Assembly: GCA_020736575.1 (NCBI GenBank)
Contig: JAGPYM010000027.1
Location: 124,001-188,000 of the forward strand
From: Thelonectria olida
Taxonomy: Eukaryota > Ascomycota > Sordariomycetes > Hypocreales > Nectriaceae
DNA: 64,000 nt
Direction of reading: 5' to 3'
Shown here: positions 12,843-60,078 of the stretch, piece by piece
How the letters are laid out: each line of letters starts with the position of its first letter
Numbering within the stretch: the stretch's first letter is position 1
Notes under the pieces: generated by a model
What the model saw: only the letters and a program-made list of their open reading frames with translations
Told to the model about the DNA's origin: nothing
The model's database searches: none
Position numbers and translations under genes: made by a program

Positions 12843-14131
12843 TTATCCAAACACTAAATTGCCATGGATCACTTGCGAGCCGTTCACAATGCTTGACTGA
12901 ACAACACTCCCACATATCGTTATCCCCCCAAGTGCAATTCCCCCGTGACACTGTTCTCGCGGCTGCTCAGCGAATCTATTGATTTCTCCCAGATCCGAGC
13001 GGATATCATTTATCCATCTCAAGAGTTCATTCAGAACACTCAGAAATCCAGGATCGGTAGGGCTTGTGAACTTGGCCATATCTCGGTGGTCGCAGTGAAT
13101 GCCTATCGCCGGATATGCTGGAAGGATAGCGGATGATTTGGGTACAACCTAAGTCATGACTGTATTAGCGACATTGAACCATGCCACCAGATTGCGTTGC
13201 AAGAATGATCTATACCTCGCGAAATCGAGGGATTGGTAGTTCTTCGTAGAAGCAGGTGATGGAGACTTTCGGAAGCTCCTCGTTCGTTCTTGATTCTAGT
13301 AAGGAGTGGAAGCCGCTTTGCACTCGAGAAAGAACCTCGGAATCGCGAGAGAGAACTTTGGCGACCCTGGTGTTCACTTGCCGGGTATTGGCTATCCACT
13401 GTACGATTCGGTCTACGGATGCTGCGAGATCAGTGCCGGAGTGAGGAGTGCCGAGAAAAGCGATGCCCCGTGTACATCGACTGATCTGCTTGAGGTGCTC
13501 CTCTGCGCTCGCTCTGGAAGTAACCAAGGCCTGCAGTTCGTGGTAATACGTTAGTCGTTAGGGCATATTGCTAGAGAAATAAGCACTAACATCCTCGCAC
13601 ACAAGACCTCCTAGGCTATGGGCAACAAAAATGATGGGCCGTTCGTTCTAATCATAATCATCAGCAATTCATTTTTTGCCCAAATTGCTCAAGCGACAAA
13701 GTCACATTTTGGCCCTTTTCTCGGTAGGTCGCCAGGGCGGAGAGAAAGTTCTGTGCGTGCTCCCCAAGTCGACTGTTTGAGATTGGAGAGTCGGCTCGAA
13801 TAATATTCGCATCATACCCATAGGTTAATATTCGAGCTTCTGGTATTTCAAGCGCCAAAAAGTCTCGAGGCCAAAAGCCAGATCCATTTTTGACCGTCCA
13901 GGTGCGCTCGCGGTGTCCGCGCAAGCCATGTATGAAGACGATACTGAACGGTAAGTCAGGTCCGTCTACACGCTGATCGCTGTCTACTTACTCGACAATG
14001 GCGCCTTGGGGCTCGGTCCAGGCCATTATGCCGTACTTTTCTTCGCTGGCTGCCTTCATCTGTCGCTGTGGCCAAAATTTCGCCATCTTATCGCTCAGGC
14101 ATTCCATGCCTCGAAGAAAAATATTGGGCAT
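12843..14131 (-). CDS. SesB-like alpha/beta hydrolase effector with C-terminal amyloid-like motif
   Basis: Five exons (14131-13992, 13943-13706, 13647-13591, 13530-13216, 13148-12843) in consistent frame, 351 residues. Seen: the strand and oxyanion segment DIVFIHGLRGH just after residue 47, LTYGYDA, the nucleophile elbow AHSLGG with Ser137, FLGTPHSGTDLAA, and a C-terminal CDHRDMAKF with His271 as probable catalytic His. This is the lipase/esterase fold (DUF676/PGAP1-like, called SesB in fungi) that normally sits at the N-terminus of NLRs or stands alone as an effector. Here no NACHT domain follows. The protein ends with about 33 glycine-punctuated, beta-prone residues (319-351) that resemble the N-terminus of the NLR at 18433. 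Known: stand-alone fungal effectors of this type carry a C-terminal prion-like motif through which a partner NLR triggers them. Inference: a membrane-lipid-targeting cell-death or defence effector controlled by that neighbour. Confidence 0.85.
12846..12944 (-). other. Candidate amyloid-signalling motif, effector copy
   Basis: Residues 319-351 of the hydrolase, directly before the stop. Pattern: GG-[I]-T-I-C-G, then QSSIVNG, then a close with NLVFG. It is beta-prone, glycine-spaced, lacks charged residues, and is preceded by a charged linker after the hydrolase fold ends near residue 295. I cannot place it with certainty in the published HET-s, sigma or PP motif families from memory; its last half has the V-x-x-GN spacing also seen in HET-s repeats. 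Confidence 0.6.
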
Positions 14132-16026
14132 AGAGTCAATGACGGGAAGGATTGTCTTTTTGTGGGAGCGATGAACGCGCCTGGTGAACTGGGCAGACAG
14201 ACAGAGGCATGCGCCCTAACCGCCCTTCAAGTCGTGTCCCTCGTAGAAGGGGCTGGGTCGGGCTGCTTCCGGGCGCCTCGCCGCCTGACTGAGTAGAACT
14301 TGACGAGAAAGGTGATGTTTGATGAACTGCCAACCCGCCCATTTTCAGGTGACACCTCCAACTGAGAGCGTGATTCAGTACAAGTCCCTTTATTATTACC
14401 TCAGGTCTATATCTCAAGCACAAAACTCCACGGTATCTACTACAACCGCGAGTGCAACAAGCGACTTCACTGCAGCGCCACCGACGACGATATCCGCCTT
14501 CCTATCCCCATAGCAGTTGTCGTTCCTTGGTTCGTTGGACTGTAAATTGTCAGACCCAATGGTGGCGGATCTACCGACCTGGACATTCCATGCCTACCTG
14601 GGCTTTGGATGGCTGGACAGAGCCTGCTACATCAAAATCAGCCCCAATCGCCCATTTCCTGACCATTTGCTCTGGGACAAGGCCTACAGAATTTGACGCC
14701 TGATTTGATTGTCACATGTTTGGAAACAAGTGATTGGGTGACATCTCTGACCGAAATTGACTCTTCCTTGGCCTGTTGCTCGGTTTCCTCGAGGGAGCCT
14801 CAGTACAAAACAGCCTCACCGTACCACAAGTGCACCGCAACCACATACCTTCGCAGGGGGTGGGGGAGGAACTGCCTCGCCACTCAATTTTCTGCCGTGC
14901 TGTCCAGTTCCATGGTTCGGCACAATTACCTGTGTGGCGGGGGCGGAACTTTTGCCATAAGACATAACATGGGCCATCTTTACAGCCCGAGAAGATGATG
15001 TTCTGGAGCTATGAATATCCGTACACTCGTGTTAAAAGTTGCAAAAGATGTAATATGTTAACAGTGGCTGGCCCAGGTTACCTCAGATGTCTAGGATGCG
15101 CCGTTCCCGTATATAACTCTCGTCGGCGCACAGAGGTTAGTCAAGGCATGTCTACTACCGTGCCTTACTGAGGCGAACCGTTCGCAATCTGCCTGACGCA
15201 TTTCTCAGAGACGGTGGGTGCGCCGACGACGCTTGAAGCTGCAGGGCATCATTCGTGGCCTTGCATGATTGGTAGTCCTTGCATTCAAGTGGTGTGGTTC
15301 TGCACCCTTCCCTTAGAATCATGTCGAGCTGAACAGAGGAGGCTTGGTCGCGACCCATCGCTCAGCGCCTCTCAGTTATTCGTACTCTGCCGCATTGAAG
15401 CGTCACATTCGAAGTAGTTGTGTATCCGATTGACGAGACCGGCCAACCGAGACGGAGGAAAGTGGTAGCCGAGACGTGAATATTGCATGGGGACAGCGAT
15501 AAGCAGTGATGTGTGAGAGATCTCTCAACAGGTCAGTTCCATTGCATTGCTTAATGATTTCCGCATTAAAGGATTTCTCCTTTTCCATACACGTATATAC
15601 TCCGGGAGGAGGTCTCCGCGCATGACCGCGAAGGAAGGATGCAAACCGATCAATTCAAACAACCGAACCCATGAGTGGGCGGAAGTGACAGGCATTGGTA
15701 CGCGAGCTTCCCGGCCCCGCATGTTCCTCCTTGCACATTCGGGGGATGCCTCGACGGTGATGCCGGTGAGGTTCGACGCGGCGAAGGCAAAGGTGGTCGC
15801 AAATGGGCATTCCCCCAGTGAGCACCCGCTTCAAGAACGCGTGTGCCTTGCGGCTGCCTTACCAAGGTTGAGTTTGCCTCTCACCCGTAGGTGAAGCCTC
15901 AGACGTCAGTCAGCCCGTCTTGCAAATGCGGCTCCGTCTCCATAACTCCGATGGTTTGTAGATTTTCGATCCAGCAGTTTCGGATTTCTTACTCTCTTAG
16001 CCGTACTTTCGGATGATTAAACAACC
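14132..16026. other. Intergenic between effector and disordered protein
   Basis: Shared 5' side of two divergent genes. Frames of up to 115 codons (for example 15547-15894) show no family resemblance. No gene supported; it probably contains both promoters and long leaders. Confidence 0.4.
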
Positions 16027-17331
16027 ATGGAATTCAATCAGGCCCCAAATTATCCCTATGGAGTTGGACCAGCGTACCCTCAATCTCAATATCATGACTT
16101 CAATCCCAGATTCAGAGATCGCCCACCGCCTGGTCTACATGTCGCACCACTTGCCCAACCGCCGCCGATGAGCCACGAACGAGCGAACTGGTCAAATTCA
16201 TATAATGGCTATGCCTATGGCTACCCCCCTGATCATTCGACGTGGGCGTCCTCGACCTTTGGAACGCAACATCCTGGGCTACCGGCTCAACCTCCCCCTC
16301 CGAGCGTAGTCAGGCCGACATTTTATCCCGATCCTGTCGACGAGTGGCAGGCCATGAGAGCAGATTGCAACGCCTTCTTTGACAGTCGCCCGCCATTGCA
16401 ATGGCAGGCGACGAGAGAATCCCAACAGTCTCAGCGGAAACCAACTATCATCAAGATTAACACGCCCCAAACAAGAGTAGAGGTGAAAATGCCATCCCAG
16501 AACCATGATTTCCACGAGGAGGCCCGAGATCAAACAGAAGAAACGCCAACAGCCCGCCGGCCGCGTCAACAACGAAATCCAAACACGTTTGTCGACGAAA
16601 GGGTGTCGACAACAGGAAGCATCGATTACGGATCTTATGTGTCTTCCAGTGATGACCGACAACCTCGCCAGCCTACTGTTGGAGATTACGAAGGCAGTTC
16701 TGTCCATCCCGCCACGGCCATCCCCCGGGAAGAGGCTCGTCAACCAGGTCGTGTGCCCCGGGAAAGCCGACCACGTATGCATCCAAGCTCAAACGAACAG
16801 CCCTTTGATGGCAGCGGGCACTTCGGTTTCCAGCGCGATAATGCTGGTCCAGCCGCCAACATATCTCAATTAAGGGATGAAGGTGGCAATGCGCATCATA
16901 ATGCCAGACTGGACCACCGCCAGAGAGGTTCCGTGCCAACCCCGGCTCGCGAGAGACGTCGCCAGCCTGCAGCCCCCGAGGCGCCTAGCTACAGATATGG
17001 GAATTTCCGCAATCGAGGCGGGGGAGGACGGCGGGAGACAGACCAACAGATGCGGGAAGCCACGGAACACATGCACGCCACCGACCCCTATGTGCACGTT
17101 GAACCGCCCAGGGGCGTGGACACTGGTCATCTGGTCGCACAAATAAGGTCAATAGTGGATCAGTATGGCTCTGAAAAGGACAGGATCAGTTCTCCTTCTC
17201 AGCGATCCCAGACGTCGAGAGACCCCGACGATCCTAACGCTCTCAAATTATTGCTTTCTCTGGTAGATATATGTGGCAGGCATTTGGATGCAAGAGACAG
17301 AGCGGAAAGTACCATGTCGTCGTTCAGGTAG
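16027..17331 (+). CDS. Uncharacterised low-complexity, probably disordered protein
   Basis: Single open frame of 434 residues; I do not recognise a family. The N-terminal third is rich in Pro, Tyr, Gln and Asn, the middle in Arg, Gln, Glu and Pro with several RRQ/RQP-type clusters and a Gly-rich RGGGGRR stretch. Only the C-terminal about 50 residues look ordered, with a hydrophobic helix (LKLLLSLVDICG) followed by a charged helix. No signal peptide or membrane segment. It lies between the lipase effector and its presumed NLR, on the NLR strand, about 1.1 kb upstream of the NLR start. Composition resembles RNA-binding or scaffolding disordered proteins, but that is only a resemblance. Open length, an ATG in good purine context and an even amino-acid pattern argue that it is a real gene. 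Confidence 0.55.
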   Translation: MEFNQAPNYPYGVGPAYPQSQYHDFNPRFRDRPPPGLHVAPLAQPPPMSHERANWSNSYNGYAYGYPPDHSTWASSTFGTQHPGLPAQPPPPSVVRPTFYPDPVDEWQAMRADCNAFFDSRPPLQWQATRESQQSQRKPTIIKINTPQTRVEVKMPSQNHDFHEEARDQTEETPTARRPRQQRNPNTFVDERVSTTGSIDYGSYVSSSDDRQPRQPTVGDYEGSSVHPATAIPREEARQPGRVPRESRPRMHPSSNEQPFDGSGHFGFQRDNAGPAANISQLRDEGGNAHHNARLDHRQRGSVPTPARERRRQPAAPEAPSYRYGNFRNRGGGGRRETDQQMREATEHMHATDPYVHVEPPRGVDTGHLVAQIRSIVDQYGSEKDRISSPSQRSQTSRDPDDPNALKLLLSLVDICGRHLDARDRAESTMSSFR

Positions 17332-18432
17332 GCTGGAACTTTCGATCACGGGAGAGTGATAATGGGTGTGCGTAGATACTTATAAATACTGATACAGGTA
17401 CCATCTGTCGAGTTAGGGCAGTAATTAATTATTGGATATAAACACACATGTAGCAATTAATAGATTACAGAGTCCAGAAGTATAAAACGAGGGCAGAGGG
17501 CACTATGGCCAAACCATTCATTTCTCATCGGCTCAAACTACAATCATCTTCATCACGTTACATATGTACTGGTGCAAGCGTTGGGGGAGGTCAAGGTACG
17601 GCGTAGGTCGCTTGTGTTGGCGAGCTGTGGAAGAGCTATTAGCCGCGATTCCTCGAAGTTGCTCATCGAGCACCTTCCACCAAGGGACAAATAAAACAAG
17701 TAGGGATCAGTCTAGTCTCTTCATTAACCTTCGTCTTCTTGTCAATTCGAGAATTTAACCCCGAGTCTCCGCAGCTGAGCTGTGGTGGTCTCGACTTGAC
17801 ATTTCCTTCGAAACCGCCTGGGAATCTGAGGTTTGCCTGGTGGGCTTGTGTTTGCTGACCACATAGCGAATCCGACAGCCTGCATGATGCAGTGCCCGAA
17901 ACGGTGCACAGTGGAGTCTTTCAACCTGCAAGATGAGCTGGCAATTGCCTAACGGGCTCTTCACCATCTTCAGCAACAGTACAGTACATACCCGTGGCTC
18001 GCGTCAGCGTCGTCGAGTCCAATCAGGGGGGCCTCTGATTGTGTTACCAGACTACCATGGTCCACGATGAGCCGCCACGCCCTTGGCGTTCTTCGTTTCA
18101 TTCGACAGTGTGATGCGCTGTTGCATTTGCCCGAGTCATCTTATGCTATCAATGATCTCATTTTCTAACCAAGCCCCCGGTTGCCGTACTGGCCCCTCTG
18201 CAAATCCTGTGCCCCGGCCCCAGCCAAGTGTCACCCAGCCGTGCTGAACCCCGCGCCATTTGAGGCTATTTCTTCGTACGGCCTAGTGGTGGATGAATCT
18301 GGACTTCCCATGAACCATGATTGGAAGTTTGACTCACGAGAGCCTGTCCATGATACGGCCCAAGAAGCCTCTCCACTACGAGCTACCTTTCCTGTATGCT
18401 ACCCGATATTGGCCGCGCCTGACGAACCTGCC
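17332..18432. other. Intergenic / NLR upstream region
   Basis: No independent gene supported. The NLR frame is open upstream to about 18181, with an in-frame ATG at 18310 that could start a protein 41 residues longer. Confidence 0.4.
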
Positions 18433-21400
18433 ATGACTCAGCAACCCAACTCTCAGCGAGCGGCTAGTGAACGCATGGGAGGAGGTGTTGTTATCACCGG
18501 AGATGCAACCAACAGTATCATAGCCGGGACACTAGATGCAAAGTCCTTGATATATGGTGGTATGTGAACTTTTCTCGTCGAAGCCAAGTGCTGGGATCGA
18601 CTCTGACGGCACTCACTATTTCTTCCAGACACTTCCAAAACCGATAATGAAGTGGTGAAATGGCTCTATCAAAGGTCCAAACTCCAGTCGGAGTCTGGAA
18701 TTCATTCAGTGTATTGCGAAGACCTGGAGAATCTACTTCGACTGTCTTCAACACAGCCAACGAGGGGTGCGTTGCTACTTAACAAACCCATTAGGGAATG
18801 GATTGAAGGCACTTCGAGCAAACTTTGGCTGGTTGGGTCGTGTAAGTTGCGATCAGAATATGAACCCCGTCTAAATATTCATGCCAACTAAAGGTTTTCA
18901 GCTGGCGTTGACAAATCAACTGTTTCGTGAGTAATCCCCATTCCCCAAGGATATGTTCTAGAAAGTATGGTTTTGACGAAACGGCCGAGCGCAGGGCGAC
19001 TCTGATCCATGATCTGCTGGATCATGGTCGGAGTTCCCAGAACTCTTCCGCCTGCGTTTATGCCTTTCTCGGGAGAAGGCGGAAGAACCTGCAGACCCCG
19101 GAAAATGTCATGAAGAATCTCCTCGCGCAATTGGTGAGCCAAAGATCGAAAGTGTCGATAAAACTTAGGAGTACCCACCAGGACTGGCAACAACGTGGTC
19201 AGTTCACAATGGAGACTGTCGTTTCACTCATGAAGTCGGAGGCCGAAAGTTTTAAGAAGATATTTCTCGTTCTGGACGTCTTGGATGGGTGCTGGAGTAC
19301 CGATGGCAATAACGCAACTCCATGGGCCGATTTACTTGCCAACATCACACGACTATCTCCTCGATTCAATATTCTTATTGTTTCAGCCGAGGATCGGGCT
19401 ATCCAGAGCAAGTTTCTTGACGCCAAGCAAGTGCAAGTAAACAAGCTTTCAAACGCACCACTCAGGAAAGATCAACTATATAAGCTGGCCATTTCCAAAA
19501 TCGAGAGGCAAGATATCTCTACACGGGATCTAGTTATCAGGGCTCTAGTTTGGCTCACTTTCGCCGAACGTTCACTCACCATGACCGAGATGTACTACGT
19601 GCTCTCGACCGGTGGAAATGACGAGTGCAGAACACCAAGAGACCAGCTCTTTCAGATAATTCGTGGATCTCTGGCTCAGATGTGCGCCAACCTTGTTGTT
19701 GTCGAAGGGGAAACTGGGGAAACTGACCGCACGCGTGTGAGACTGGTGGACCCTACCGCGAGAGACATTCTCAAGCCATGGCTTAACACAGTCCGTAAGA
19801 GCCCAGAGTCCATTATCGCAAAAGAATGTCTCCAGTGTATTCTTCATGACAATCTCAGGGGAAGAAAGTCGGAAGAAGAGCTCAATGCGCTCATTAATGG
19901 GGCTGCACTACTCAAGTATGCAAGCAGTCACTGGTATCAGCATGTCGAAAGCTTTCAGGCGAAGGAAGGAGAAGACTGTCCTCTAACTCGCGTGGAAGAA
20001 CGCATCTTCGACGATACCACAGCTTCAAACATTGCAAGAGCCATTAGTGGGCTAGAGCATGAGAGGGAAGTCACAGGTATCCATCTTGCTAGCTTTTGGG
20101 GCATAGCGGATATGATTGACGGGCTTCACAAGCGGGCAATTGAGCAAGCTGAGCTCGGGCGTGGATTATACCCAGAGGAGAGCCGATTAGTCGACAAGAA
20201 AACGAGGAGAGGGGGAACTCCGCTGCATTTTGCCGTTGCCCAAGACCATTGTGAGGTCATTGAACGGTTGATTAATTTGAGAGCAGACGTCAAAGCAAGT
20301 GACAGCCTCGGCAGGACTGCCCTGCACCAGGCAATCGTGAGTGGGCACAATCTTCCAGTTCTCACCCTACTGAAAGCAAACCTCGACGTTAATGCTACCG
20401 ACAAGAATGGAGATACGCCGCTGATCAGTGCCGCTAAGAATGGCATGATTGACGCTGTGAAGTATCTCGTCAATCACAGGGCAAAACTCGACAATGAAGA
20501 CAGGTTCGGGAGCACTGCTTTGCGCAATGCTACTGAGGGTAACCACAGCGACATCGTCTGGTATCTCTTAGAGAAGAGGGCGCAGTGGAAGAGCCGCGAT
20601 AGGGAGTGGTCGCTGTTCTACTGGGCAACCACACAGGGTCAGGCCGACATATTGGATTTTCTCATCAAACAGGGAGAAGACGTCAATATCACGAGGCCGG
20701 GAATGGACGGGACTCCCCTCATGGATACCGTTCGCTACGACCACTGGAAGGCTTCGTGGCTACTGGTCCAGTCAGGCGCAAGGTTGGAACTCTCGGATGA
20801 GAAAGGCGACACAGCTCTCCACGTCGCCATTCGATATCAGAGGCAGTCGATCATGTGGCTGCTACTTCAGAGCGGTGCCAATCCTAACCAGCCAAATAAG
20901 GCTGGCATGACAGCCCTTCACGGGCTCGCCATGACTCCAGACAGCTCGTCCTCGCAGTCGGTCGCCTGGCTCCTGGTAATGCAATTCGGGGCCAAGGTGG
21001 ATGTCCAGAACAAGAATCAGCAGTCGCCTCTCCACCTGGCCGCCAAGTATGGGCACGCGTCCCTTGCTAGCTTTCTAGTCACTACTGGTCAGGCAAGCCT
21101 CAAGATTCGAGATTCGGTGGGGCGCACAGCTCTGCACGTCGCTGCGGACAATAATAGCAACGATGAAGTGGCTCGGATTCTCATGGCTAAGGCCGATAGC
21201 TCTGACCTCAAGCTTCTTGACACAAGAGGGGAGTCGGCGTTACACATTGCGGCCGCACGCTGCAACGGGGCCCTATTCCTAGCACTCTGCAAACCTGAAA
21301 TCATCGATCAAGAGGACGGGAGTGGAAGAACTGCCTTGCAACGGGCTATTGATGGCTACGACAGCGACTCCGAGGAGGCTCGGTGGATGGTGTGGTGTTT

Positions 21401-21653
21401 GATTCGTCGCGGCGCCGACGTGAACAGGAAGACTGGTGACCGAGGCCGAACACTCGTGCATTTGGCCGCATCAAAGGGGCTTGCTGAGGTTGTTGAAATG
21501 ATGTTCAAGTTATCAACTCCCGATATCAGCGTGAGTGATGACAACGGCTTGACGCCAATGTCAGTGGCATCCGACGGTGGGCATAGGAACGTTGTGGAAA
21601 TCCTGAAACGGAATGTCCCCTCCAGCAGACGTCAACAGGAAAAAGAGACCTGA
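18433..21653 (+). CDS. NACHT-ankyrin NLR with N-terminal amyloid-like motif
   Basis: Four exons: 18433-18559, 18629-18841, 18902-18926, 18962-21653; frame kept at each junction, 1018 residues. Residues 17-42 form a glycine-spaced motif matching the C-terminus of the lipase at 12843. Then a linker with NKPIREWIEG, the usual lead-in to a fungal NACHT, and the P-loop at residues 112-120, read as GSSGVDKST: the last glycine of GxxxxGK[ST] is Asp117. The P-loop is carried by a 25-bp exon. Walker B appears as FLVLDVLDGCW, followed by a winged-helix-like block (ALVWLTFAERSLTMTEM). About a dozen ankyrin repeats fill residues 540-1005 (GTPLHFAV, GRTALHQAI, GDTPLISAA and so on). Known: NACHT oligomerisation templates the N-terminal motif, which then converts a partner effector. 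The start at 18433 was chosen because it leaves the motif near the N-terminus; 18310 is the alternative. Confidence 0.85.
18481..18558 (+). other. Candidate amyloid-signalling motif, receptor copy
   Basis: Residues 17-42 of the NLR. Pattern: GG-V-V-I-T-G, then NSIIAG, closing with SLIYG, against GG-I-T-I-C-G, SSIVNG and NLVFG in the effector. With one or two single-residue gaps most hydrophobic and glycine positions coincide. The intron follows immediately, so the motif sits on its own exon. Confidence 0.6.
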
Positions 21654-35992: not shown

Positions 35993-38900
35993 TTACATAA
36001 TAAACGGCAAGTTCGTATCTGTAGATATTAGTACTGGCGTGCATGCTAAGGTAGAGCGCTTTACAAGGACATACCGAGAGGGTGACTGCAGGAGAGTTGT
36101 GGCTTCTGGGCATAGCGGGTTGCGAGCTCATCGCGAACGCTGTGGAGGAGCTGGATGTAGCTCTGCTGGGAGTTCTTCTTGAGGGCGGAAACAAAGGCCC
36201 AGGACATGCCGCCGGTCGCGCCATCGGAGCTATAAGGATAGTTAGCTTCTGTTGCTCTGCCGCGTATATGGACGTTATGCAACAGGGGAACTCACGAAGC
36301 CTGGTCGTCCTTGCTACCGGACAACAGGATGACGTCGGCACGGGAGGTCTTAGCCATAGGGTCCCGAGCACCATCACCGTTGGCAGCCTTTTTAATAAAA
36401 CTCAAAACGTTGCTCGACACGTCACCAAGGTCGCCTTGGCTGTATGCGGAGATCACGCCAAGCAGGCCTTGGCCGGCTACCTTAGCAAGGTTGGGTTCCT
36501 TGAGGATGCCTTGTGTCGAGTAGATATAGGGCAGGTTGAGGGCCGTTCCGGAATGGCAGGAGTCAAAAAGAGCTGTCAGACGAACCCCAGGCAATAAGGG
36601 GTTGACCATAATATGCTGCATCTCATCATCACTGATGTGACCGGCTTGTCGGAAGTCGACAGGGTAAATAACCTCATTAAAGCTATCCTCCTCATCACCG
36701 TCCAGATTCTTGGCTTGACCACCATGGCCTAGGGCTGTCAGCAAAATGAAGGACCACGAGGCGGGGTTATGATGCCGCATTTGTACCTGAGTAATGGAAG
36801 AACAAAGAGTCATTAGGTTGAGCGTCTTTCACCAGCCAGCCCATAGCATGCAAGATGTTCTGTTTTGTAGGCTGGCATATAGGACCCTGATCATCGGTAA
36901 GAATTCGGATATCCTCGCGTTTATAGCCAAAGTCCTCCGAGAGGTAAACGGCCATATTGCGGACATCGTTAATGCAACCACGCAGCTGACCACGTTGGTC
37001 AAAGTAGTTGATACCAATCAACAAGGCTTTCTTCCTACCAGTGCAGCTAGAGTATGTGAAGCGAAAGCTGTTCGGGGCGCCGTGGCCGAATTGCTGAGGT
37101 GCTGAGGGGGGAGGAGGGGGGCCAGTCGGTCGAGAGCGATACGCCGTGCTTGGGGAAGGCTGAAAGAAGATATTGGAAGGCGAGGCTCCGGGGCTGAGGG
37201 TCTTTTGAGAAAGCGGCGATGGATGTTGGAGGGTGCAACTCAGATTCTTCATGCTAGCGAGCGTGTCGGGATGTTCTTTGCCCAGCACTGTCTGCCTCAA
37301 CTCAAGTGTTTGCCGATGCAACTGCTCTGCCTCATCATACATCCCCCTGCTATCAAACAAAAGTGCGAGGTTATTCATACTGGCAAGTGTATCAGGATGA
37401 TCCGGGCCTAGGACTTTCTGCCGTAGCTCGAGTGTCTGCCGGTGTAGATCTTCGGCCTCCTGGGATCGGTCCTGACGTTGCAGTATATTTGCAAGGCTGT
37501 TCATGCTCATAAGCGTGTCAGGATGCTCTTTGCCATTCGCTCTCGCCATCAGGTCGAGTATCTGTCGGCATGTTTGCTCTACCTCCTCATATCTCTCTTT
37601 ACCATCGAGCAGGTGTGTGAGGTTGTGCATGCTGGCGAGTGTATCGGGATGTTCTTTACCCAACACGGCCTGCCTCAGCTCAAGCGTCCGCCGGTGCAAC
37701 CGCTCTCCCCCTTCATATTTCCCCTGGTTAATGAACAAGAGGGCAAGGTTGTTCATGCTAGCAAGTGTATCTGGATGCTGCTGGCCTAGAACCTTCTGCC
37801 GTAGCTCGAGTGTCTGCTGGTGCATCTCTTCTGCCTGCCAGTATCTGCCCTGGCGTTGGAGGACATTTGCAAGGCTATTCATGCTACTGAGCGTGTCCGT
37901 GTGCTCTGCACCCATCGCCTTCTGCCTCAGCTGGAGGCCCGCTCGATGCGCCTTTTCTGCCTGTTGGTATTTCCCGAGAAGATATAGGCACACGCCAATG
38001 TTGAAGAGAAGACGACTTTTGGCTTCGTCATCATCCACGGCTTCTGATAAGTCCAAAGCGGTCTGGCCATGTGGTAGATACTTCAGCCATCTGTCTCTAT
38101 TTTCGTGCAGTGGACGTGGGAACACAATGGCAAGCCTCCGTACCACTAAGGTGACGCATTCCCCGAGTCTTTTCTCCTTCTCTATCCAGTTTCGCATCGC
38201 GAGCCGGACTAGCCGATGCATGTCGAACAAGTTCGATTCAGAACGCTCAGATACAAATGCATATGCTTTCAAAATGCCGATTGCTTCGTCTCTCTCGATC
38301 TCATCATCCTCGAACTCCTCGTCTGCCGGAGGCAGCAGAGAGGCCGGTACTCCCTTCTCGGCGAGGAAGCACATGAATCTGAGGTACTCCGCGGCAAGTT
38401 TGTTATCTCTTGAAATATGCTCAAACGATATCAACCAAGTTGTGGCTACCGGATTCATAATCTTCTCGTAGCGACCCCGATCCTCGAAGTCCTTGCTGAG
38501 CAACTTGATCAACCTCTTATCGCTCGATCGGCAATACTCGAGATACTTGGCCGTCGAAATCCCCGTCTTGGCCATATAAGCAGACGCTTGCTTGATGGCT
38601 AGGGGTAAATCAACGAGGAAGTCAAGCAAACTAGTTGCGTGCTCGAAGTCGGGAGCTTGGCTCTCTTTTATGTTTCGCTGTAACATCTTGATGGATTCGT
38701 CTCTGCTCATTTCTCCTACCGTGAAAACATTGCTCGTAGGAATGTCCAGCCCCACGGTGACTTCGTGGTTCCTCGTCGTGAACACGATCGAACCATTCCG
38801 ATTGAAAGGTAACCATTTGGCAAGTGATGCGGTTTTAGCATCGCCGAAGAGACTCTCTACGTCATCGGCATTGTCGATGACGAGGAGCCAGCTTGAGGTA

Positions 38901-40333
38901 CTTTCACTCAAGGCAGTCTTGACGAGGATCCCAACATCTGCCTTGGCCTCATCGATGCCATTAACCTTGAGCTGCCGGCCGATCCCACGATAGGCATTCT
39001 CAAAACTAGTGGCATCAACCGCCGGAACCCAGAAGACCGAGCAGTCTGGGTACTCATCGCGAACCCGAAACACGGCCTCCAGCGCGATCTGCGTCTTACC
39101 AACCCCGCCGAGACCTTCGATGGCTATCCTTTGGCAGTCGTCCCCGTCTGCACTGGGGGGGGTCTTCTCAAGAAGTTGTAGAAGAATTGCCTCACGTCCA
39201 ACAAATTCCCTGTTTCGCCCGAAAGGGACCATGAAGTGACGCTCCTGCGAACGTGGGTTGGCATGGCATTGGTTATTTTGCTCGAAGCCGATTTTATGGC
39301 GCTTGGGTACATAGATAGCTTTTGAATGCGCTTCGGCCACGGGTAGCACGTCTAGCAATTCGCTTGCGTATGCAGCCGCGGTTAGTGCAGCATATCTCTG
39401 CCATTTCTTGTTCTTGTGGGAATCTGAGTAGTCGCAGATACCCCGAATTGGGAGGCAAGGAAGAAGATCCATCAGACCGGCAGCCTCCATTTCAAAACAT
39501 ATGACATGCAGTCGTCCAGCAATGTCGTCGCGGGTAATGCCGTGTCTGATTACCTGGTTTCCTGAGGCGATCGCACCATAATGTATCATCGGATCATTAG
39601 ACACCCGCCTGCCTCGTAGCACCAGCTTCGACTGGTCGCACCCATCGCAAGTAGGCGTTGCGGGCTCATGATCGTATGCTGCTTGGAAGAGGCGATCCGG
39701 TGAGCTCGGGCGACCGTACTCGGGGCGTCCTTGAAACCTCTCTCCCAGGATGGATGAGACTTGAAAGGGGCTTAGCTCATGTTTTGACTGTAAGGTAGAT
39801 ATGGCTGTGCCCAGGAATGGCTGAAGAGTCCTGGGGATTGCTGTAGGCTGGATCTGTTTGTCTCCGACAAGCTTCCCTAAGTCGTGTTGTATGACTTTCG
39901 TTCCGACAACAATGTCCCCTAGGCGTATGTCGGCATTGAGCGGCACGCCGCCTCCGATGCCTACCATCAAAGCGAGGTGGATCGACGGAAAGGTGCGGAT
40001 CAGGTGGGTTAACACATTAGCCGCATTGTTCGTTCCGTACTGGGAAGTGGGCAGGCACGCAATGACAATATTGTGATCCTTGATGCTCCCCAGCGTGTAG
40101 GTATTGCTGTCGTTGTCCTGACGGGGCAGGTCGCCGTGGGTCTTGTCTAGCATAGCACGAGCTGCTGCCATCTCTATGTGCAGAGCGCAGATCCAAGCGA
40201 CGGTGTACTCATCGTGGAGTGGAGTGGGCGCATTGCCCAGGTCATGGTCGAAAGCCCTTTGTCGCTTGAGAGGGTGGGATGAGCTTATCGTTGTGCCATC
40301 GTCCATCTCGGCGAAATCTCCATATAGTGACAA
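35993..40333 (-). CDS. PNP-NB-ARC-TPR protein fused to type I metacaspase
   Basis: Four exons: 40333-36787, 36728-36296, 36229-36075, 36018-35993; frame is kept throughout, 1386 residues. In order: a purine-nucleoside-phosphorylase-type domain (about 40-330; [28 protein letters not shown]), common as an N-terminal domain of fungal NLRs; NB-ARC (about 375-650) with intact P-loop GLGGVGKT near residue 405, Walker [23 protein letters not shown] and a MHRLV motif; six 42-residue kinesin-light-chain-type TPRs (about 775-1030); a Pro-rich linker ([11 protein letters not shown]) of the kind found in metacaspase prodomains; then a complete caspase-fold domain from [12 protein letters not shown] at 1100. 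Catalytic His1184 (HYSGHGG) and Cys1240 (DSCHSG) are both present, 56 residues apart as in yeast Yca1. The last 26-bp exon supplies the family's C-terminus. NLR and protease lie on one uninterrupted 3.5 kb exon, so the fusion is not a model artefact. Inference: a sensor that activates its own protease. Confidence 0.9.
37240..38010 (-). repeat. Six tandem TPR units, about 126 bp each
   Basis: The units encode variants of [21 protein letters not shown]. Neighbouring units are nearly identical in protein and close in DNA (GTGTCGGGATG / GTATCAGGATG spacing recurs every 126 bp). Such internal similarity is typical of NLR sensor repeats that exchange and expand. Confidence 0.8.
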
Positions 40334-41887
40334 TTCACAGGCTTTGCTAGGCGTGCAACCGTCGGTAAGGATAGATATTGCTTAGCCACGGAAGGGAAAG
40401 CCTCTAGAGAAGGGCGCTTAATACAAGTTGGTCCGCGGATTGGTATGTGGACGTGGAAGAAATGCCGGTGTCAGGCAGACGAGGGAGGCCTTGGCGATAT
40501 GACTAAGAAAATTGGGGTGAAATGCAGGAAAACCCCGCAACTACCGGAGGAGATCCGTCATTAGGTAGAGTAGTCTGCTATTTCCGCCCAGCCACTGAAT
40601 AAACAGATGTGAAGATGGGCTTGCAAGAATGACTGTATGCAGGTAAGGGATTGCCTCACGAGGTTCAAGACATGAACTCGAATGCCTGTTCTCGTCGGGA
40701 GACGTGGCTTCTCGGAATATCTAGCCGAGGCCGAAACAGAGTATGGTTGTTAGGAACCAGTAAGCATGACACGGATTCAACAAGTAGAAAGTAGATTTCA
40801 CGGGCCGAATCGAAACATGACTCAAAAGTTGAATCAGTTCATCTTACTACCTAGGTAGGTGTTCTTGAATATCTGGACTATGCTTCCGAAAGAAACAAGC
40901 AATACAGAATTCCCATCCATCCTGCCCTAAAGAACCACTACTTACGTTTCGATACCCAGCTTACTGATTCGATTCATACAAAATGGTAGAATAGGCACCA
41001 TTCACAGATGGGTCCATTTGTCAGCGGACGTGTGCAGGGGTCGCAGTCCGGGTGTTTGCATACACACCAAACCTCCCTGTTCACTTTCGGGGCGTCCTTT
41101 GAAGTATCGGTCGCCTTTGCATTCTTGGTGGTCTTCTGCTCACCAGAGGAGTTTGAGGCGTTGTTGGTCATAGTGATAGCAAGTTGGAGTAATTAGATAT
41201 CTAATACTTTTACGAATTGTGAGAGTAAAAGGCTTGTTGAGAAATGTTGGAAGTCTGGTACCTGAACTGCGGGAGGAATTTATACTTTTCCGAGACACCT
41301 AAATCACACAATCTTTTACTGTGTATTAGCCAGATCATCTTGAGAATACATGCTGTTGACATGGGCATATGCACCCCCAATAGAGGTGATAAGGACTCAG
41401 AGTATTAATTTTATCGTTGAGAGATCAAGTTGCATCCTACTCACACGAGCTGAGAGTTTTCGAGTCAACTTGGGAGATTTACGTCAGATATTGCCGGTGA
41501 ATTGCGTGCAACACCTTCGTACTCGCGATTTCATCTCGCCACAGGAATATTCCTTCACTCATTTCCTATCGGTGACTCAATACACCTCCTCACGGATCCA
41601 AGTAGCTTCGAGGCACGCATGGCGAATCATAAAGACATTCACAACACTGGAAAGATATCACGTACTCCTAAAAAAGGTCTTTGACGAAACTAGCATCCCT
41701 GATCAACATATTGTCTCGTGTCCTAGTCAAGTAGGTATGCTTCCGTGGCCACCCACTTGCTCACATGCATGGTCTCATGATCTCATCAACCCATAAAAGT
41801 GTTCTCCCCAGTGTCTGCTCTCGGCTTCAAATGAAATGGTGCTTTTGTGCTGCTTCGAGAGTTGTCTGATGTTATACGTGTAACTAC
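40334..41887. other. Intergenic with one small candidate ORF
   Basis: Promoter of the fusion gene and 3' flank of the regulator gene. Apart from the 65-codon frame at 40974-41171, a 148-codon plus-strand frame at 41350-41796 shows no family pattern. Confidence 0.4.
40974..41171 (-). CDS. Small cysteine-rich protein, hypothetical
   Basis: 65 residues. The N-terminal half is polar and charged (Asn/Ser/Lys-rich), the C-terminal half holds six cysteines spaced as C-x-C-x4-C-x2-C-x10-C-x2-C between CVCKHPDC and EWCLFYHF. No signal peptide, so it is not a classical secreted small cysteine-rich protein. The paired CxC/CxxC pattern would suit a small zinc-binding fold. Support is only the cysteine pattern, the clean ATG and the compositional contrast with its surroundings. 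Confidence 0.35.
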   Translation of the reverse strand: MTNNASNSSGEQKTTKNAKATDTSKDAPKVNREVWCVCKHPDCDPCTRPLTNGPICEWCLFYHFV

Positions 41888-47480: not shown

Positions 47481-50400
47481 TCATGTAGCGAAAGATTCGG
47501 CTCCATGCTGGAGGAGGAGTGCTTCGAGCATCTGCCGTTCGTCCTCCGAGTGTACCTTTCTGGACCCATCTTGGCAAATAAACAGAGCGCTCATGCCTTC
47601 CAAATGGTAGAAGTTGCCGAATATGCCAGACCACCGAACACCGTCCGGGTCTCCCAACCTATTTGGATCCGCTCCTGCACGGAGCAGTGTCTCAACTTCG
47701 ACAAAGTCGAAAGCTGCTACAGCTATTTGTAAAGGAGTTATCGCGTACTCCGCTCCATTTGGGTCGCAGCCAAGTTCCAATATACGATTCAACAGCCGCG
47801 GATCGCGGTCACAGCGATCTTCATGGTCTTGGTCACGTCGACATCTCCCAACGTAGGAGTACAGTACTGCCGTAGGATTGTGTAGAGTTGTTCCCTGATC
47901 TAGGATGAATTCGAGACGTTCTCCCATTCCATATCCTCCCGGTGCTTGGGCGAAAAACTCGACCATCCGCCCATTGAACTCACACCATGTGATGTTGTTG
48001 TCAGCGTCTTCTAGCTCCATTCCAAAATGTAACGGCGTGTGCACAAAGTCTAGGCTCTGCTTCATTTTCTGGAAAAGTCCTTTCGCTAGGGGCTCGAAGT
48101 TATCGGCAAGTACGAGAATGGAAAATAGAACCATTGCACACTCGAGGGTCCGGCTGGGTTTATCAGTAGACCTCCAATGCACTGACGTAAATTCGAATGC
48201 GGCCAGGTCATGCACCCCGTTGTTTTCGCTGAGTAGAAGAAGCGAACATTGGCAGAGGTATAGAAATTGCAAAATCGGCCCAGCGTGAGCGCCTAATGGA
48301 TTGAGCATGTCGAACAGGTGGTCGTTGAGGTCCTGGTAACTAATGATCTCGCTCGGATGGGAGGATATAGAGAAAATTGCCGAGACAACACAATATGAGC
48401 GGAAGTTGCCTGTTAAGTTGCGAAAAACATTGACTTTGAGGTCCTCGGAGTCGTCTTCCAGGCTTAAATTTTCGAAGTTCGACGCTCGGAATTCAAGCGC
48501 GGTAAGGAAGATTCTCCGCTGAATATCAAGCTCGATCTGCTTTTCAAGCATGAAAAACGCGACCGCGCTGGTTGATATACGATCCGAATCGAGAAACTCG
48601 CGAACCGTGTAGTGGGCAAAAGAAACAACCGGAATTGCTTCATGTATTAATTCATCGCCCTGGTCGTGAATCTTAAAGCCGTACCCTGGAGAGACATGCA
48701 CCAGGCAACCGCAGATTTCCTTAAGATCTTGTTCGTCATATGGGCACTCATCTTTGGGTTCGCGTTGTTCGTCATTGCTGAACTCGAGGGCTTGGAGAAG
48801 AATAGCGCAAGGGATGTTATTGTCGTATTGTTCATTATGGAAATGAATCCACCTCAAACACTGCCGTACAAATGATCGCTCCTCGTCCGAAATCTCGAGA
48901 AAGATCCTTTCATATGTTTCGTCTAGTGTCCTTGGGAGCGTTGCTAAAGCATGTTTGATAATCCGAGACTCGCCCTTGAGTCGTTGGAGGCGATCGAGTT
49001 GGCAAACAACCCAGCGGAACCTAACGGGTATATCCCCTTAGAAAGATATGTTGACTAGAACATGAACAGGGTTTACTTACATTCCCTTCGCTCTGGTGGA
49101 CAGAATAGTCTCTACCTCACCACGTAGTTGAGAGTTCCAACGCTTGAATTTGGGATTATTTCGTAAGCTCGACCGAACATACAGTAGTATGTCCAGTTCA
49201 ATGAAGGAATTGGACATCGACACCGGCTTAGATATCTCTTCAAACACCCTCTCGATATCGAGGTACTCACGACTCGTGACCAAGAGCTGGATTTTGCTGA
49301 ACCGCGGATCGGTGCCCAGATCCCGGAGGGTTTTGAGTAGGTCGTCTCGGGGCTTGCTCTCATCGACGGCGTCAACAATGACGTAAATGGTTTGGAATCC
49401 ATCAAGAATAGTTGCCAGAGCATTGAGGAGCTTCGGAAGACTCGGTTCACACCTCTGCTTGAAGATGGCATAGGTTTCAGCCGGGACGGCTTCTGCCCGG
49501 CGGCAGAGCTGAGTTACCAGCCATCGCAATAATGGGGCGCTTTCGTCCTGGTTATGACCGAAATAACAATAATAGTAGAGGGCAGCACACTTTGGCCCAA
49601 GCTCATCGTGGCAGTGGGATGCAACCGTGTCGACCAAGTAAGACGCCAATACCGTCTTCCCAGCGCCTGGGATCCCATGTATCCAGAGACACCGGTATGT
49701 TGCGGCGAGCCAATCGGCCCATTCGGGCAATCGCAGCATCCAGTTGCAGGTTCCGTCCTCAACTAGTTTTCGAGATCGATTATGTAGAGGAGACGGATCC
49801 GTACTCTGAAGCCATCGACAAAACTCGTTGCGTTGGCTCTCTAGAATTCCGTCAATCGGTGCCACCTAATCTCCCATAACGAGTTGTCTGTAATGACCGC
49901 CATCACTGGTATCGGGGGTACTACAGGCAACTTGTTGTTCTCATGCAGACTTACCAGTCAACATGTCGTACATCCCTATTGCTTTCTCCTTGATGGTCTT
50001 AATATCCTGGCTAAACCGAGATACAATTAGTTTTTCACGAACCGAGGAACTGAGAACATGAGGGAGCAATCTCCGAGGCTCTTGGCCATGAATGTCGAGA
50101 TACAGCTCAGGCACTTACGTAGACTCAGCAGTTATCGCCAAGGTAATTGCCGTCTTGTACCGACCCAGCTCTTCAAGTAATTTCCGAGCTTTAGGCTCCT
50201 TGAACGGCCACGCTAGCCTTGCCGCCATCGCCGTGACCTTTTCTCTCGCTGAGGAGGAAGCATGTCTCGTCGGCATACCTCCATCTGGAAACAGGTCAAT
50301 TAAGCTTGTCAGTATCCTGTGGCAATGCTCAAGGGGGCCATCGGGCTTTGAGAGGTTACTGAACGCGGCTGATACGGTATTATCGCAGCTGATCAGAAAT

Positions 50401-52072: not shown

Positions 52073-53973
52073 ATGGCCGAGGCCGCCGGTCTTGCTTTCG
52101 GGGTCATCGGCCTCGCAGGCCTGTTCACGGCATGTGTTGAGAGCTTCGATATCGTTGTTCGTGCCCAGGATTTCAGTGAAGACTTTGATCTTCTCTGTAC
52201 GCAGGTGGGTAGGAAAGCAGCGAACTTTAACGCCAGTATACCAACTAATTGCATCAGCTCTCACTTCAGCAGATCCGGCTTGTTCATTGGGGCGAAGCGG
52301 TCGGCCTTGTGCCCAGAGAGGACGGGAAGAAGCACACATACATAAAGGCCATTGAGCGGCCCCATGTCCGGCGTGCAGTTGAAGCTAGTCTGCAGCACTT
52401 GCAAAGGTTACTCTCCAAGGCCGACGATCTGACCGGACGATACGGGCTCCGAGACGCCCACACCATCGAGCTCGACGACACGCAGGCGCCGCCCAAGGCA
52501 GCGACGATATTCCGCGAGAGCTTCGACAGATTCAAGGCGCGCCTCAGGAGGCACCAAAAGCAGCAGTCGACATGGAAAGTGACAAAATGGTCCATCCACG
52601 ACCATAACAAATTTCGGGAACTGGTCACAGATATCAGAGAGATCCTTGATGGTCTGCAAAGTGTCACGAGCTCACTTACAGTCTTGCAAAAGCAGCTAAG
52701 CTTGCTCGACGATGATATGAGCGCCATCTCGGACCGTGAAAGCCTGTTGCTTCTGAAGAAAGCTGGCTCGACAAGTGGTGCCTCGCCAATACTGAAGGCA
52801 ATTTCCGCTAGAGCAAGTCAAAGAATTTCGAACAGCCTCTCCGACAATTGGTCGTTTCACACGGCGGAATGCTACCTATCCATTACGGGGTCTTCCGCAA
52901 GCATAGAAGACGAGAGTCCAGCCCCCCGATCCCGGATGCACCGTCCCAGGGGTGGCGAGAGGACCGTCCCTGACCCCATAACAACCCTTAGGGAGCTATG
53001 CCCCCCTATCGCGGAATATTCTTATCGAGACCTCGAGAATATCGGTTCCGGCGCGTCTGCATCCGTATGGAAAGCCCACGACCGAACTTCAAACCGAGCC
53101 GTTGCCATGAAGCAGGTTGATTTAGGGAAGCAGCTTAGAGTGGATCTGATCGTCAATGAAATCATCGTCTTGAAGGACAACTCACATCCAAACATTATCA
53201 ACTTCGTCAGAGGTCATCTGGAATTAGCTGGTCCAGAGCTATGGATTGTTATGGAATACATGGACGGAGGCCTGTTGACGGATGTTCTAACCTTCAACAT
53301 TATGACCGAGGGTCAGATCGCTTCAGTTTGTCGAGAAACGCTACAGGCGCTTCAGCACTTGCACGCGCAAGGAGTTATCCACCGTGATGTTAAATCAGAC
53401 AACGTTCTCTTGTCAAAAGACGGGAATATCAAGATAAGTCCGTTAACTCCTGCTTGTAACCTTCTCGTATGCTAACGCGACGGCTAGCCGACTTTGGCTT
53501 CTGTGCTAAACTGTATGAGCCGGGCGAAACAAAGACAAGTATGGTCGGAACTCCTTACTGGATGGCACCTGAAGTGATACAAAAGAAGCCCTACGACCAT
53601 AAAGTAGATGTGTGGTCAATGGGAATTATGGCAATAGAGATGATCGATGGCGAACCCCCTTACGTCACTGAAGATCGCTCAAGAGCAATGGATCTCATTG
53701 CCACAAACGGACGGCCGCCGATTGTTTCCGAAGACAGCCTTTCAGCTCGATTCCGAGGCTTTGTGCATTCCGCTCTAACGCCCGATCCAGCAGGAAGACC
53801 GAGTGCAGATGCTCTACTAAAGGTACGTTCTCCAGCACCGTTGACTGAGCCATATGCTCACTCGCATATAGCACGAGTTCATGGCCGAGTGCGTTGTGTT
53901 ATCTGAACTTGCACCATTAGTTCAATGTGCATTAGCTATTCGGGCAGAGGAGAAGGGTCGAAAAAGAGGATAA
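52073..53973 (+). CDS. HeLo domain fused to PAK/Ste20-type protein kinase
   Basis: Four exons: 52073-52204, 52270-53437, 53488-53822, 53872-53973; 578 residues. The N-terminus (GLAFGVIGLAGLFTACVESF, then QIRLVHWGEAVGL) matches the HeLo domain of HET-S-type death effectors, including the spacing between the hydrophobic first helix and the R-L-x-x-W-G-E-A-V segment. A helical connector covers about 80-230. The kinase domain begins near 294 with IGSGASASVW; VAMK Lys325, HRDVKSDN with Asp417, DFGFCA with Asp435 and GTPYWMAPE are all intact, so it should be active. Sequence is closest to PAK/Cla4-type kinases (TDFGFCAKL, MVGTPYWMAPEV), but no CRIB or PH domain is present. Known: HeLo is the fungal counterpart of the four-helix bundle of MLKL, which also precedes a kinase-like domain. 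Inference: a kinase-gated membrane-damaging protein. Confidence 0.88.
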
Positions 53974-59334: not shown

Positions 59335-60078
59335 GGTCGGCTAAAGAAAGGAAACCAGCGGTGCGATGAAAACGAGTTCTAGTTCTGCAGATGATGGCTG
59401 CTTTGTCAGTGGGATTCTGGGAGTACTCAACAACCTCCTGTGCGATTGCGAGACAGGCCGCATCTTGAGGCAATTTTTATTCCCGACCATATTTCAGCCG
59501 CACAGCCTGATTATTTCAGCCCACCTTCCCCCATGTCTCTCTTCCTATGTATCATTGGCTTGCTTACGGTCCTTGACGCCGATCTCCGCTCTTGCTTACG
59601 AGCTGAGCTGCACCTCGCCGAACTAAGCAAGCAAGCCTACGTCGGTAAGTTTGAGCTGATAGATGCCTCAAATCACTGTGCTTGGCTTACGTTGCCGGCA
59701 AGGACAGCGAGGTGCCAAAATTGCATTGGGATGTAGAGGCAGCAAAATTCCATTTACTGATTCACTAAGCGTACAAGTACTAGATTTGAGGTCATTTCAG
59801 ACTAGGTAATTACCTTGATCCTCAGGACATCGTTCAAGAGAAACTTGGAGACTGATTGTGCGGCTAAGCTTAAGCTAGTATCCATTGATGCCTCAATGCA
59901 GGGGGTTGAATAAGTATAATGTCAACATTCTTCTCAGTAAGTAAATGAGTAAAAACAATCGCTGTTGTGTTTAAAATAAATTCATTTAAATAATGTATGA
60001 CTTTGAATAACTCAATAACAAGGCTCCAGTTTCAGAAGAGATTTCTATCAGTTACAGCGCCCTAATTACACAAAAGCA
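59335..60078. other. Intergenic
   Basis: Promoter of the ankyrin/CorA-like gene and 3' flank of the GH16 gene. No gene supported. Confidence 0.4.

What the first reader, a model, noticed from the sequence alone, without database searches (positions are those of the whole stretch)
12843..21653. Lipase effector and NACHT-ankyrin NLR share a candidate amyloid-signalling motif
The SesB-like hydrolase ends with GG-I-T-I-C-G ... SSIVNG ... NLVFG, and the NLR begins, near residue 17, with GG-V-V-I-T-G ... NSIIAG ... SLIYG. Positions of glycines and of branched hydrophobics coincide over about 27 residues with one or two single-residue gaps, although the two proteins are otherwise unrelated. One copy is at a C-terminus, the other at an N-terminus on its own exon, which is the layout known from fungal NLR/effector pairs using HET-s, sigma or PP motifs. 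The genes are divergent and 4.3 kb apart. I cannot place the motif in a named family, so it may be a new one.
Basis: partly seen in the sequence, partly recalled or inferred. Interest (0 to 1): 0.9.

Follow-up and report, generated by a model that had tools for sequence, protein, structure and literature searches.

The report
Unnamed C-terminal motif of fungal SesB-lipases
A fungal lipase-like protein ends in a short conserved motif shared with relatives in other fungi that matched none of the named families we could test, and a nearby immune receptor starts with a weak, partly degenerate look-alike, so this is a promising but unproven candidate for a new prion-like signalling tag.

Summary
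The window is Thelonectria olida. Both segments exist as described. The effector half is solid: a 28-residue motif, about GGITIxG[ND]VxxSxVVxGxQxIxGxLxF, ends 34 of the 120 listed SesB homologues, marks one supported SesB clade, and is nearly as conserved as the enzyme (51% against 56% identity) across a linker at 9%. It matches no relevant Pfam model and none of five published motif patterns.

The receptor half is weak. An effector-only profile ranks the NLR N-terminus second of 9,591 reading frames, but the pairwise score is 40 (32 of 20,000 shuffles), against 100-103 for three NLR-effector sigma pairings in the same genome. The NLR copy lacks the Q-x-I-x-G part, and its NACHT has altered Walker A and B residues. 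A search for NLR-length proteins with the motif found none, although up to 19 of 34 effector versions should have been visible.

Verdict: a new, probably assembly-type, SesB tail motif. Its pairing with this NLR is plausible but unproven, and the NLR may be decaying.

The parts
12843..14131 (-). SesB-like alpha/beta hydrolase gene, exons 14131-13992, 13943-13706, 13647-13591, 13530-13216, 13148-12843, 351 aa; AHSLGG nucleophile motif (S137, in 90% or more of 64 aligned proteins) and invariant H271
   Evidence: spliced model identical to P0001; Pfam DUF676 just over and Abhydrolase_6 just under cut-off; alpha/beta-hydrolase neighbours in the PDB; conserved columns
12846..12929 (-). C-terminal motif 'M' of the hydrolase, residues 324-351
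   Evidence: 47.7-52.5 bits to a profile of 32 foreign SesB tails; motif in 34 of 120 listed homologues
12930..12998 (-). variable linker between catalytic domain and motif (residues 301-323)
   Evidence: 9% mean pairwise identity among the 34 motif-bearing proteins over residues 301-322
18433..21653 (+). NACHT-ankyrin NLR gene, exons 18433-18559, 18629-18841, 18902-18926, 18995-21653, 1,007 aa
   Evidence: GT-AG introns and open frame; NPHP3_N 76.3 bits, NACHT 23.7 bits (cut-off 26.7) on the first 529 residues; ankyrin repeats
18478..18558 (+). candidate NLR-side copy of the motif, residues 16-42, within exon 1
   Evidence: second-best of 9,591 frames to the effector-only profile, 8.6-10.3 bits; pairwise tests
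18835..18926 (+). Walker A region split by an intron (GSSGVDKST; D where 18 of 19 distinct P-loops found in this genome's loci have G), includes 25-nt exon 3
   Evidence: translation; survey of own genome
19266..19292 (+). Walker B region LVLDVLDGC (G where 15 of 16 distinct strings found have E)
   Evidence: translation; survey
16027..17331 (+). intervening 434-codon open frame, no Pfam family at E<=1, no second copy at E<=0.001 in this genome

Best explanation
The hydrolase tail is a conserved self-assembly (probably beta-arch, amyloid-type) docking motif of one clade of SesB-like lipases. The tail is disordered until templated by an oligomer carrying a compatible motif, and assembly then activates the lipase, as proposed for the published sigma and PP systems. 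In T. olida the neighbouring NACHT-ankyrin NLR is the likeliest former or present partner: its first exon holds a partly degenerate copy, and its nucleotide-binding site also looks degenerate, so the receptor side here may be decaying. Shown: the motif, its conservation, its clade, and its failure to match Pfam models and five published patterns. Inferred: assembly, templating, lipase activation and homology of the NLR segment.
For: 34 of 120 listed SesB homologues carry the motif, ending 0-5 residues from the C-terminus in 33 and 11 in one, and no protein scores 5-12 bits (32 of the 34 built the profile, P0001 and P0012 did not). Mean pairwise identity is 56% in the catalytic part, 9% in the linker, 51% in the motif. 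One clade (97/99) holds the 34 bearers and 2 others. Three near-invariant glycines (32, 30 and 31 of 32 rows), hydrophobics at eight positions, Q19 in 28 of 32 rows. The model is poorly ordered in the tail, with two short strands. Sigma-like tails mark a separate part of the SesB tree, and SesB tails are reported to work as tags shared with NLR N-termini (PMC3321046, passages). NLR side: profile rank 2 of 9,591 frames; hhalign to the motif profile P = 0.00067, probability 27%; the 15 foreign SesB tails most like the NLR end are all motif bearers, mean score 35.8 (n=33) against 20.6 (n=86) for other tails; an effector-only sigma-like profile scores the sigma stretches of the same genome at no more than 8.2 bits, so a low cross-species score is not disqualifying.
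Against: Three NLR-effector sigma pairings in this genome score 100, 102 and 103 pairwise (0 of 5,000 shuffles each), the window pair 40. The local hydrolase is not the best match to the NLR (rank 8 of 120), contrary to the within-cluster similarity reported for sigma. The NLR copy lacks Q19, I21 and G23. Shuffles of glycine-rich sigma stretches reach 9.9 bits with the same profile. No protein of NLR length matched five motif variants at E<=10, although up to 19 of 34 effector versions (14 of the 29 not in the query) should have been visible. A published paired screen that included DUF676, PGAP1 and Abhydrolase_6 effectors names PP, sigma, HRAM-like and PNP_UDP-associated motifs only (PMC9815663, sections 24, 54, 55). 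Walker A and B differ from the usual. No amyloid predictor or assay was run.
Confidence: 0.42

Rival explanations
1. The motif is a real SesB tail element that works without NLRs (homotypic oligomerisation, membrane or partner binding), and the NLR resemblance is chance between two glycine- and valine/isoleucine-rich ends.
For: No NLR-length protein with the motif found although up to 19 of 34 versions should have been visible; published paired screen does not name such a motif; pairwise chance 32 to 107 of 20,000 in a window where many ends could be compared; seven foreign tails match the NLR end better than the neighbour does.
Against: Rank 2 of 9,591 frames for an effector-only profile, at the one place a partner would be expected; G7 and S12, the two invariant columns of the profile, are both kept.
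Confidence: 0.38
2. The motif is a diverged sigma motif: same partners (SesB lipase, NACHT-ankyrin NLR, 5' intron), with the QF/TQN rungs lost and the terminal I-x-G-N-L-x-F-G rung kept or doubled.
For: Locus anatomy resembles het-eN/sesB (PMC3321046 passages); one T. olida sigma tail ends ATITGNLNFGSS and scores 6.8 bits to the motif profile, 0 of 500 shuffles as high.
Against: hhalign probabilities 5 and 7% to two sigma alignments; six other T. olida sigma stretches are matched by 19 to 176 of 500 shuffles; no sigma submotif in 34 of 34 tails, though the same test finds one in only 1 (A) and 8 (B) of 18 sigma-like tails; motif and sigma-like tails lie in different parts of the SesB tree.
Confidence: 0.12
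3. The NLR is a pseudogene in decay, so the locus has no working receptor-effector pair now. (Can hold together with the best explanation.)
For: Walker A G to D and Walker B E to G, both unusual among the T. olida NACHT loci in which the pattern was found; degenerate second half of the N-terminal motif; no protein of 554-1762 aa matching residues 1-260 at E<=0.001 in the protein database, not even its own.
Against: A 2.66-kb last exon stays open and all three introns have GT-AG ends; ankyrin repeats score highly.
Confidence: 0.3

Closest known systems
sigma motif system (SesA/SesB/HET-eN, Nectria haematococca; Pfam PF17106)
   Same: SesB lipase with C-terminal tag, NACHT-ankyrin NLR with N-terminal tag cut off by a 5' intron, neighbouring genes
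   Different: none of the QF / GTQN submotifs; 28 rather than about 40 residues; no PF17106 match; different part of the SesB tree
PP motif system (HELLP/SBP/PNT1; Pfam PF17046, named Ses_B)
   Same: tags a putative lipase as well as a pore former; short glycine/glutamine motif
   Different: G-h-Q-h-x-G core absent in 34 of 34 tails; here the order is G-x-Q-x-h-x-G
HET-s/NWD2 (HRAM families)
   Same: effector C-terminus and NLR N-terminus layout
   Different: no Pfam HET-s match; one motif copy, lipase instead of HeLo effector
PUASM and GDQN motifs
   Same: recently described fungal motif families with effector/NLR pairs
   Different: published patterns found in 0 of 34 tails; other effectors (PNP_UDP, SesA)

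Membership tests
sigma motif | repeated A (GxGxQF) and B (GGTQN) submotifs | tested here: not met
   0 of 34 tails and not in the NLR end (the same test finds A in 1 and B in 8 of 18 sigma-like tails, so it is not very sensitive); hhalign 5-7%
sigma motif | match to Pfam PF17106 | tested here: not met
   none, while PF17106 finds nine places over its cut-off elsewhere in the genome. Limited: two sigma-like tails tested (P0025, P0031) also did not match it
PP motif | pseudopalindrome with GLQL-type core / Pfam PF17046 | tested here: not met
   0 of 34 (the pattern was found in no tail of the 120, so it has no positive control there); no PF17046 match, positive control P0085 matches PF17046
HRAM / HET-s | Pfam HET-s models | tested here: not met
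   no such Pfam match among 32 motif rows at E<=10; no positive control for these models was run, and the HRAM consensus itself was not tested
PUASM, GDQN | published patterns FxGxGxQxxGxGxF and NxxxGxQYxxxGxGDQNxVSxxxxQxN | tested here: not met
   0 of 34, no positive control in the set; patterns from PMC9815663 section 24 and PMC12261475 section 12
unassigned NLR34 motif of PMC9815663 (28 aa, Ascomycota) | its sequence logo | not testable with these tools
   logo is in a figure not held; only Table 1 and text seen
fungal amyloid signalling pair (functional class) | same motif on effector C-terminus and on NLR N-terminus of a neighbouring gene | tested here: inconclusive
   effector side clear, NLR side weak
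fungal amyloid signalling pair (functional class) | recurrence of the pair in several genomes | tested here: inconclusive
   no NLR-length protein found (up to 19 of 34 versions visible); no fungal genome other than the window's was searched
fungal amyloid signalling pair (functional class) | fibril formation and prion-like templating | not testable with these tools
   experiment needed
SesB-like lipase | alpha/beta-hydrolase fold with Ser nucleophile and catalytic His | tested here: met
   that H271 is the catalytic His is inferred from its invariance

The most novel reading that the evidence does not exclude
The motif is a new family of fungal amyloid signalling motif, found on SesB lipases in Sordariomycetes and Leotiomycetes, whose receptor side has been overlooked because it sits on a tiny first exon that gene predictors drop, and which diverges faster on the NLR than on the effector.
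Probability: 0.33. Interest if true: 0.7.

Novelty: new member of a known kind. Interest (0 to 1): 0.5.

Why it matters
A 2025 paper counts five fungal amyloid signalling families (HRAM, sigma, PP, PUASM 1-2) and adds GDQN (PMC12261475, passages and section 12). A lipase-specific family shared by many genera would add a separate signalling channel, give a defined set of proteins for cross-seeding tests, and show how receptor sides can be missed when they lie on a small exon. It also offers a case where the tag and the nucleotide site of an NLR seem to decay while the effector tag stays intact.

Tried and rejected
Low-complexity background: rejected for the effector side, because the motif is a conserved island with a bimodal score distribution. 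Identity with sigma, PP, PUASM or GDQN: not supported by patterns and, for sigma, by profiles. Homology with two other SesB tail types that I noticed (called c4 and c5): not supported (hhalign 5.5 and 13.8%). Search for homologues of the NLR N-terminal 260 residues: none of 2,166 candidates at E<=0.001, which suggests that this NLR itself is not in that database in a comparable form. Own-genome searches with the NLR motif and with the effector consensus each found one place only: the NLR exon and the hydrolase tail. Paper search for motif strings: 0 papers. NCBIfam: nothing relevant for two proteins. Pfam PF17046 in the own genome: 0 matches. That I found no report of this motif rests on searches of open-licence papers and on the parts read; figures and supplements were not seen.
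Full report
Identity of the window. The spliced hydrolase (five exons) is identical over 351 residues to a protein of Thelonectria olida on a contig of 587,541 bases, the length of contig C86 of the held genome. The window is therefore T. olida (Nectriaceae, Sordariomycetes).

The two segments. The NLR model needs three GT-AG introns of 69, 60 and 68 bases and a 25-base exon that encodes part of the P-loop. With exons 2 and 3 the NPHP3_N score rises from 46.9 bits (last exon alone) to 76.3 bits, which supports the splice. The motif lies on exon 1. The genes are divergent with start codons 4,302 bases apart, but a 434-codon open frame, without a second copy in this genome and without Pfam family, lies between them.

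The effector motif is real. Of 1,142 homologues, the best 120 were listed; the rest were not seen. A profile from 32 foreign tails (A1) finds the motif in 34 of these 120: the 32 that built it, P0012 (partial) and the T. olida protein. It ends 0-5 residues from the C-terminus in 33 and 11 in one, and no protein scored between 5 and 12 bits. The T. olida tail, not used in the profile, scores 47.7-52.5 bits. Thirteen positions are nearly constant in kind among the 32 rows: G7 and S12 in 32, G23 in 31, G17 in 30, Q19 in 28, and hydrophobics at eight positions in 30 to 32. Among the 34 proteins mean identity is 56% in the catalytic part, 9% in the linker and 51% in the motif. On a tree of 120 catalytic domains the label needs 3 changes against a mean of 29.5 for shuffled labels, and one clade (97/99) holds all 34 bearers plus two proteins without it, P0002 and P0094, whose different ends may be gene-model errors (inference). 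Bearers named include Xylaria, Nemania, Podospora, Rhypophila, Chaetomium, Monosporascus, Neopestalotiopsis, Halenospora and Acephala; Xylaria is in Sordariomycetes and Halenospora in Leotiomycetes. Sigma-like tails (18 of 120) sit elsewhere on the tree, and two further tail types (11 and 5 of 120) were noticed.

It matches no named family tested. Of the 32 rows, none matched a relevant Pfam model at E<=10 (two unrelated families were each matched by one row). Control protein P0085 matched PF17046, the PP model named Ses_B, and PF17106, the sigma model, found nine places over its cut-off elsewhere in the genome. The published PP, sigma A, sigma B, PUASM and GDQN patterns, the sigma ones loosened by me, occur in 0 of 34 tails (patterns from passages or sections read). 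This pattern test is not sensitive: it finds sigma A in 1 and sigma B in 8 of 18 sigma-like tails, and the PP, PUASM and GDQN patterns in none of the 120. Profile comparison with two sigma alignments gives 5-7% probability; one T. olida sigma tail resembles the last rung (6.8 bits, 0 of 500 shuffles), six others much less (19 to 176 of 500 shuffles as high). An unassigned NLR motif of 28 residues in Ascomycota, NLR34 in Table 1 of PMC9815663, could be the same thing; its logo was not available.

The receptor side is weak. For: an effector-only profile gives the NLR end 10.3 bits (0 of 5,000 own shuffles; 1 of 5,000 shuffles of the hydrolase end was higher) and places its frame second of 9,591 frames of 20 or more codons in 313,703 bases: the window and 74 loci, among them 39 from NACHT-type searches and 15 from the NB-ARC search, some overlapping. 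Its E-value there is 0.42; the third frame, at 7.8 bits, matches only nine columns. hhalign to the profile gives P = 0.00067, probability 27%. The NLR end prefers motif-bearing SesB tails to others (35.8 against 20.6). Against: the profile aligns only the first 15 columns; Q19, I21 and G23 are absent. In the same genome NLR-effector sigma pairings score 102 (C13) and 103 and 100 (C81, where the NLR end is placed by its position just before a NACHT match), and the two C81 effector tails score 118 with each other; the window pair scores 40 (NACHT places). Seven foreign tails match the NLR end better than its own neighbour does. Shuffles of sigma stretches reach 9.9 bits with the same profile. 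As a calibration, an effector-only sigma-like profile scores this genome's sigma stretches at most 8.2 bits, so a low cross-species score alone does not exclude a pair.

Search for other receptors. Five natural motifs joined in a query of NLR length returned no protein at E<=10 from 995 candidates. Measured power: if the 34 effector motifs stood on an NLR, 20 would score E<=10, one of which shares no word with the query and so would not become a candidate; that leaves at most 19 of 34, or 14 of the 29 that were not in the query. The T. olida NLR itself would not pass. So canonical copies on annotated NLRs of 494-1571 aa are rare or absent in that database, whereas diverged copies, longer proteins or unannotated first exons would be missed. 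A published paired screen names PP, sigma, HRAM-like and PNP_UDP-associated motifs; it required at least three pairs and took NLRs from Pfam NACHT/NB-ARC, and this NLR scores 23.7 bits against the NACHT cut-off of 26.7. In the sigma locus a 5' intron of het-eN also went unnoticed at first (PMC3321046, passages).

State of the NLR. Walker A reads GSSGVDKST and Walker B LVLDVLDGC. In a survey of 39 loci with a pattern that leaves the tested position free, 18 of 19 distinct P-loops have G before K and 15 of 16 distinct Walker B strings have E (the exception looks like a chance match). Seven of the 39 loci gave no P-loop and 12 no Walker B string, so other degenerate copies may have been missed. 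Change of both suggests impaired nucleotide handling or decay; that is inference.

Enzyme. The hydrolase has weak Abhydrolase_6/DUF676 matches, conserved S137 and H271, a model with a confident core, mean pLDDT 75.5, and a poorly ordered tail with two short strands in the motif, and serine-hydrolase neighbours in the PDB (best E 1.3e-07, TM 0.46 by query and 0.61 by target).

Mechanism. I take the motif to be an assembly tag that keeps the lipase off until its tail is templated by an oligomer, by analogy with sigma and PP. Steps shown: the motif, its conservation and position. Steps inferred: assembly, templating, activation, and the partnership with this NLR.

Noticed in passing
window 36770-40381 (-): Large NLR-like frame of 1,204 aa combining PNP_UDP_1, NB-ARC, TPR repeats and a C-terminal caspase (Peptidase_C14) match.
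   Followed up: no
window 52249-53472 (+): HeLo domain fused to a protein kinase domain in one open frame.
   Followed up: no
window 49080-49865 (-) and 56800-59340 (-): Another NACHT frame and a large ankyrin-repeat frame: the window holds several immune-type genes.
   Followed up: no
SesB tails P0054, P0063, P0074, P0088, P0090, P0091, P0093, P0102, P0112, P0119, P0120 (c4) and P0036, P0045, P0055, P0083, P0084 (c5): Two more recurrent SesB C-terminal tail types (about GGNxISGx...GKxxQGx.. and ITQGGSxxxGxTTVNGGSLFQGN). In the one example of each scanned (P0091, P0084) no Pfam model matched the tail over its cut-off. Possible further tag families.
   Followed up: partly
genome G000, C81:46916-48682 and C13:298367-299132: Sigma-type effector/NLR clusters in T. 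olida with strongly matching tags.
   Followed up: partly
genome G000: 152 places match the NPHP3_N-type NACHT model (exons counted apart), pointing to a very large NLR repertoire.
   Followed up: no
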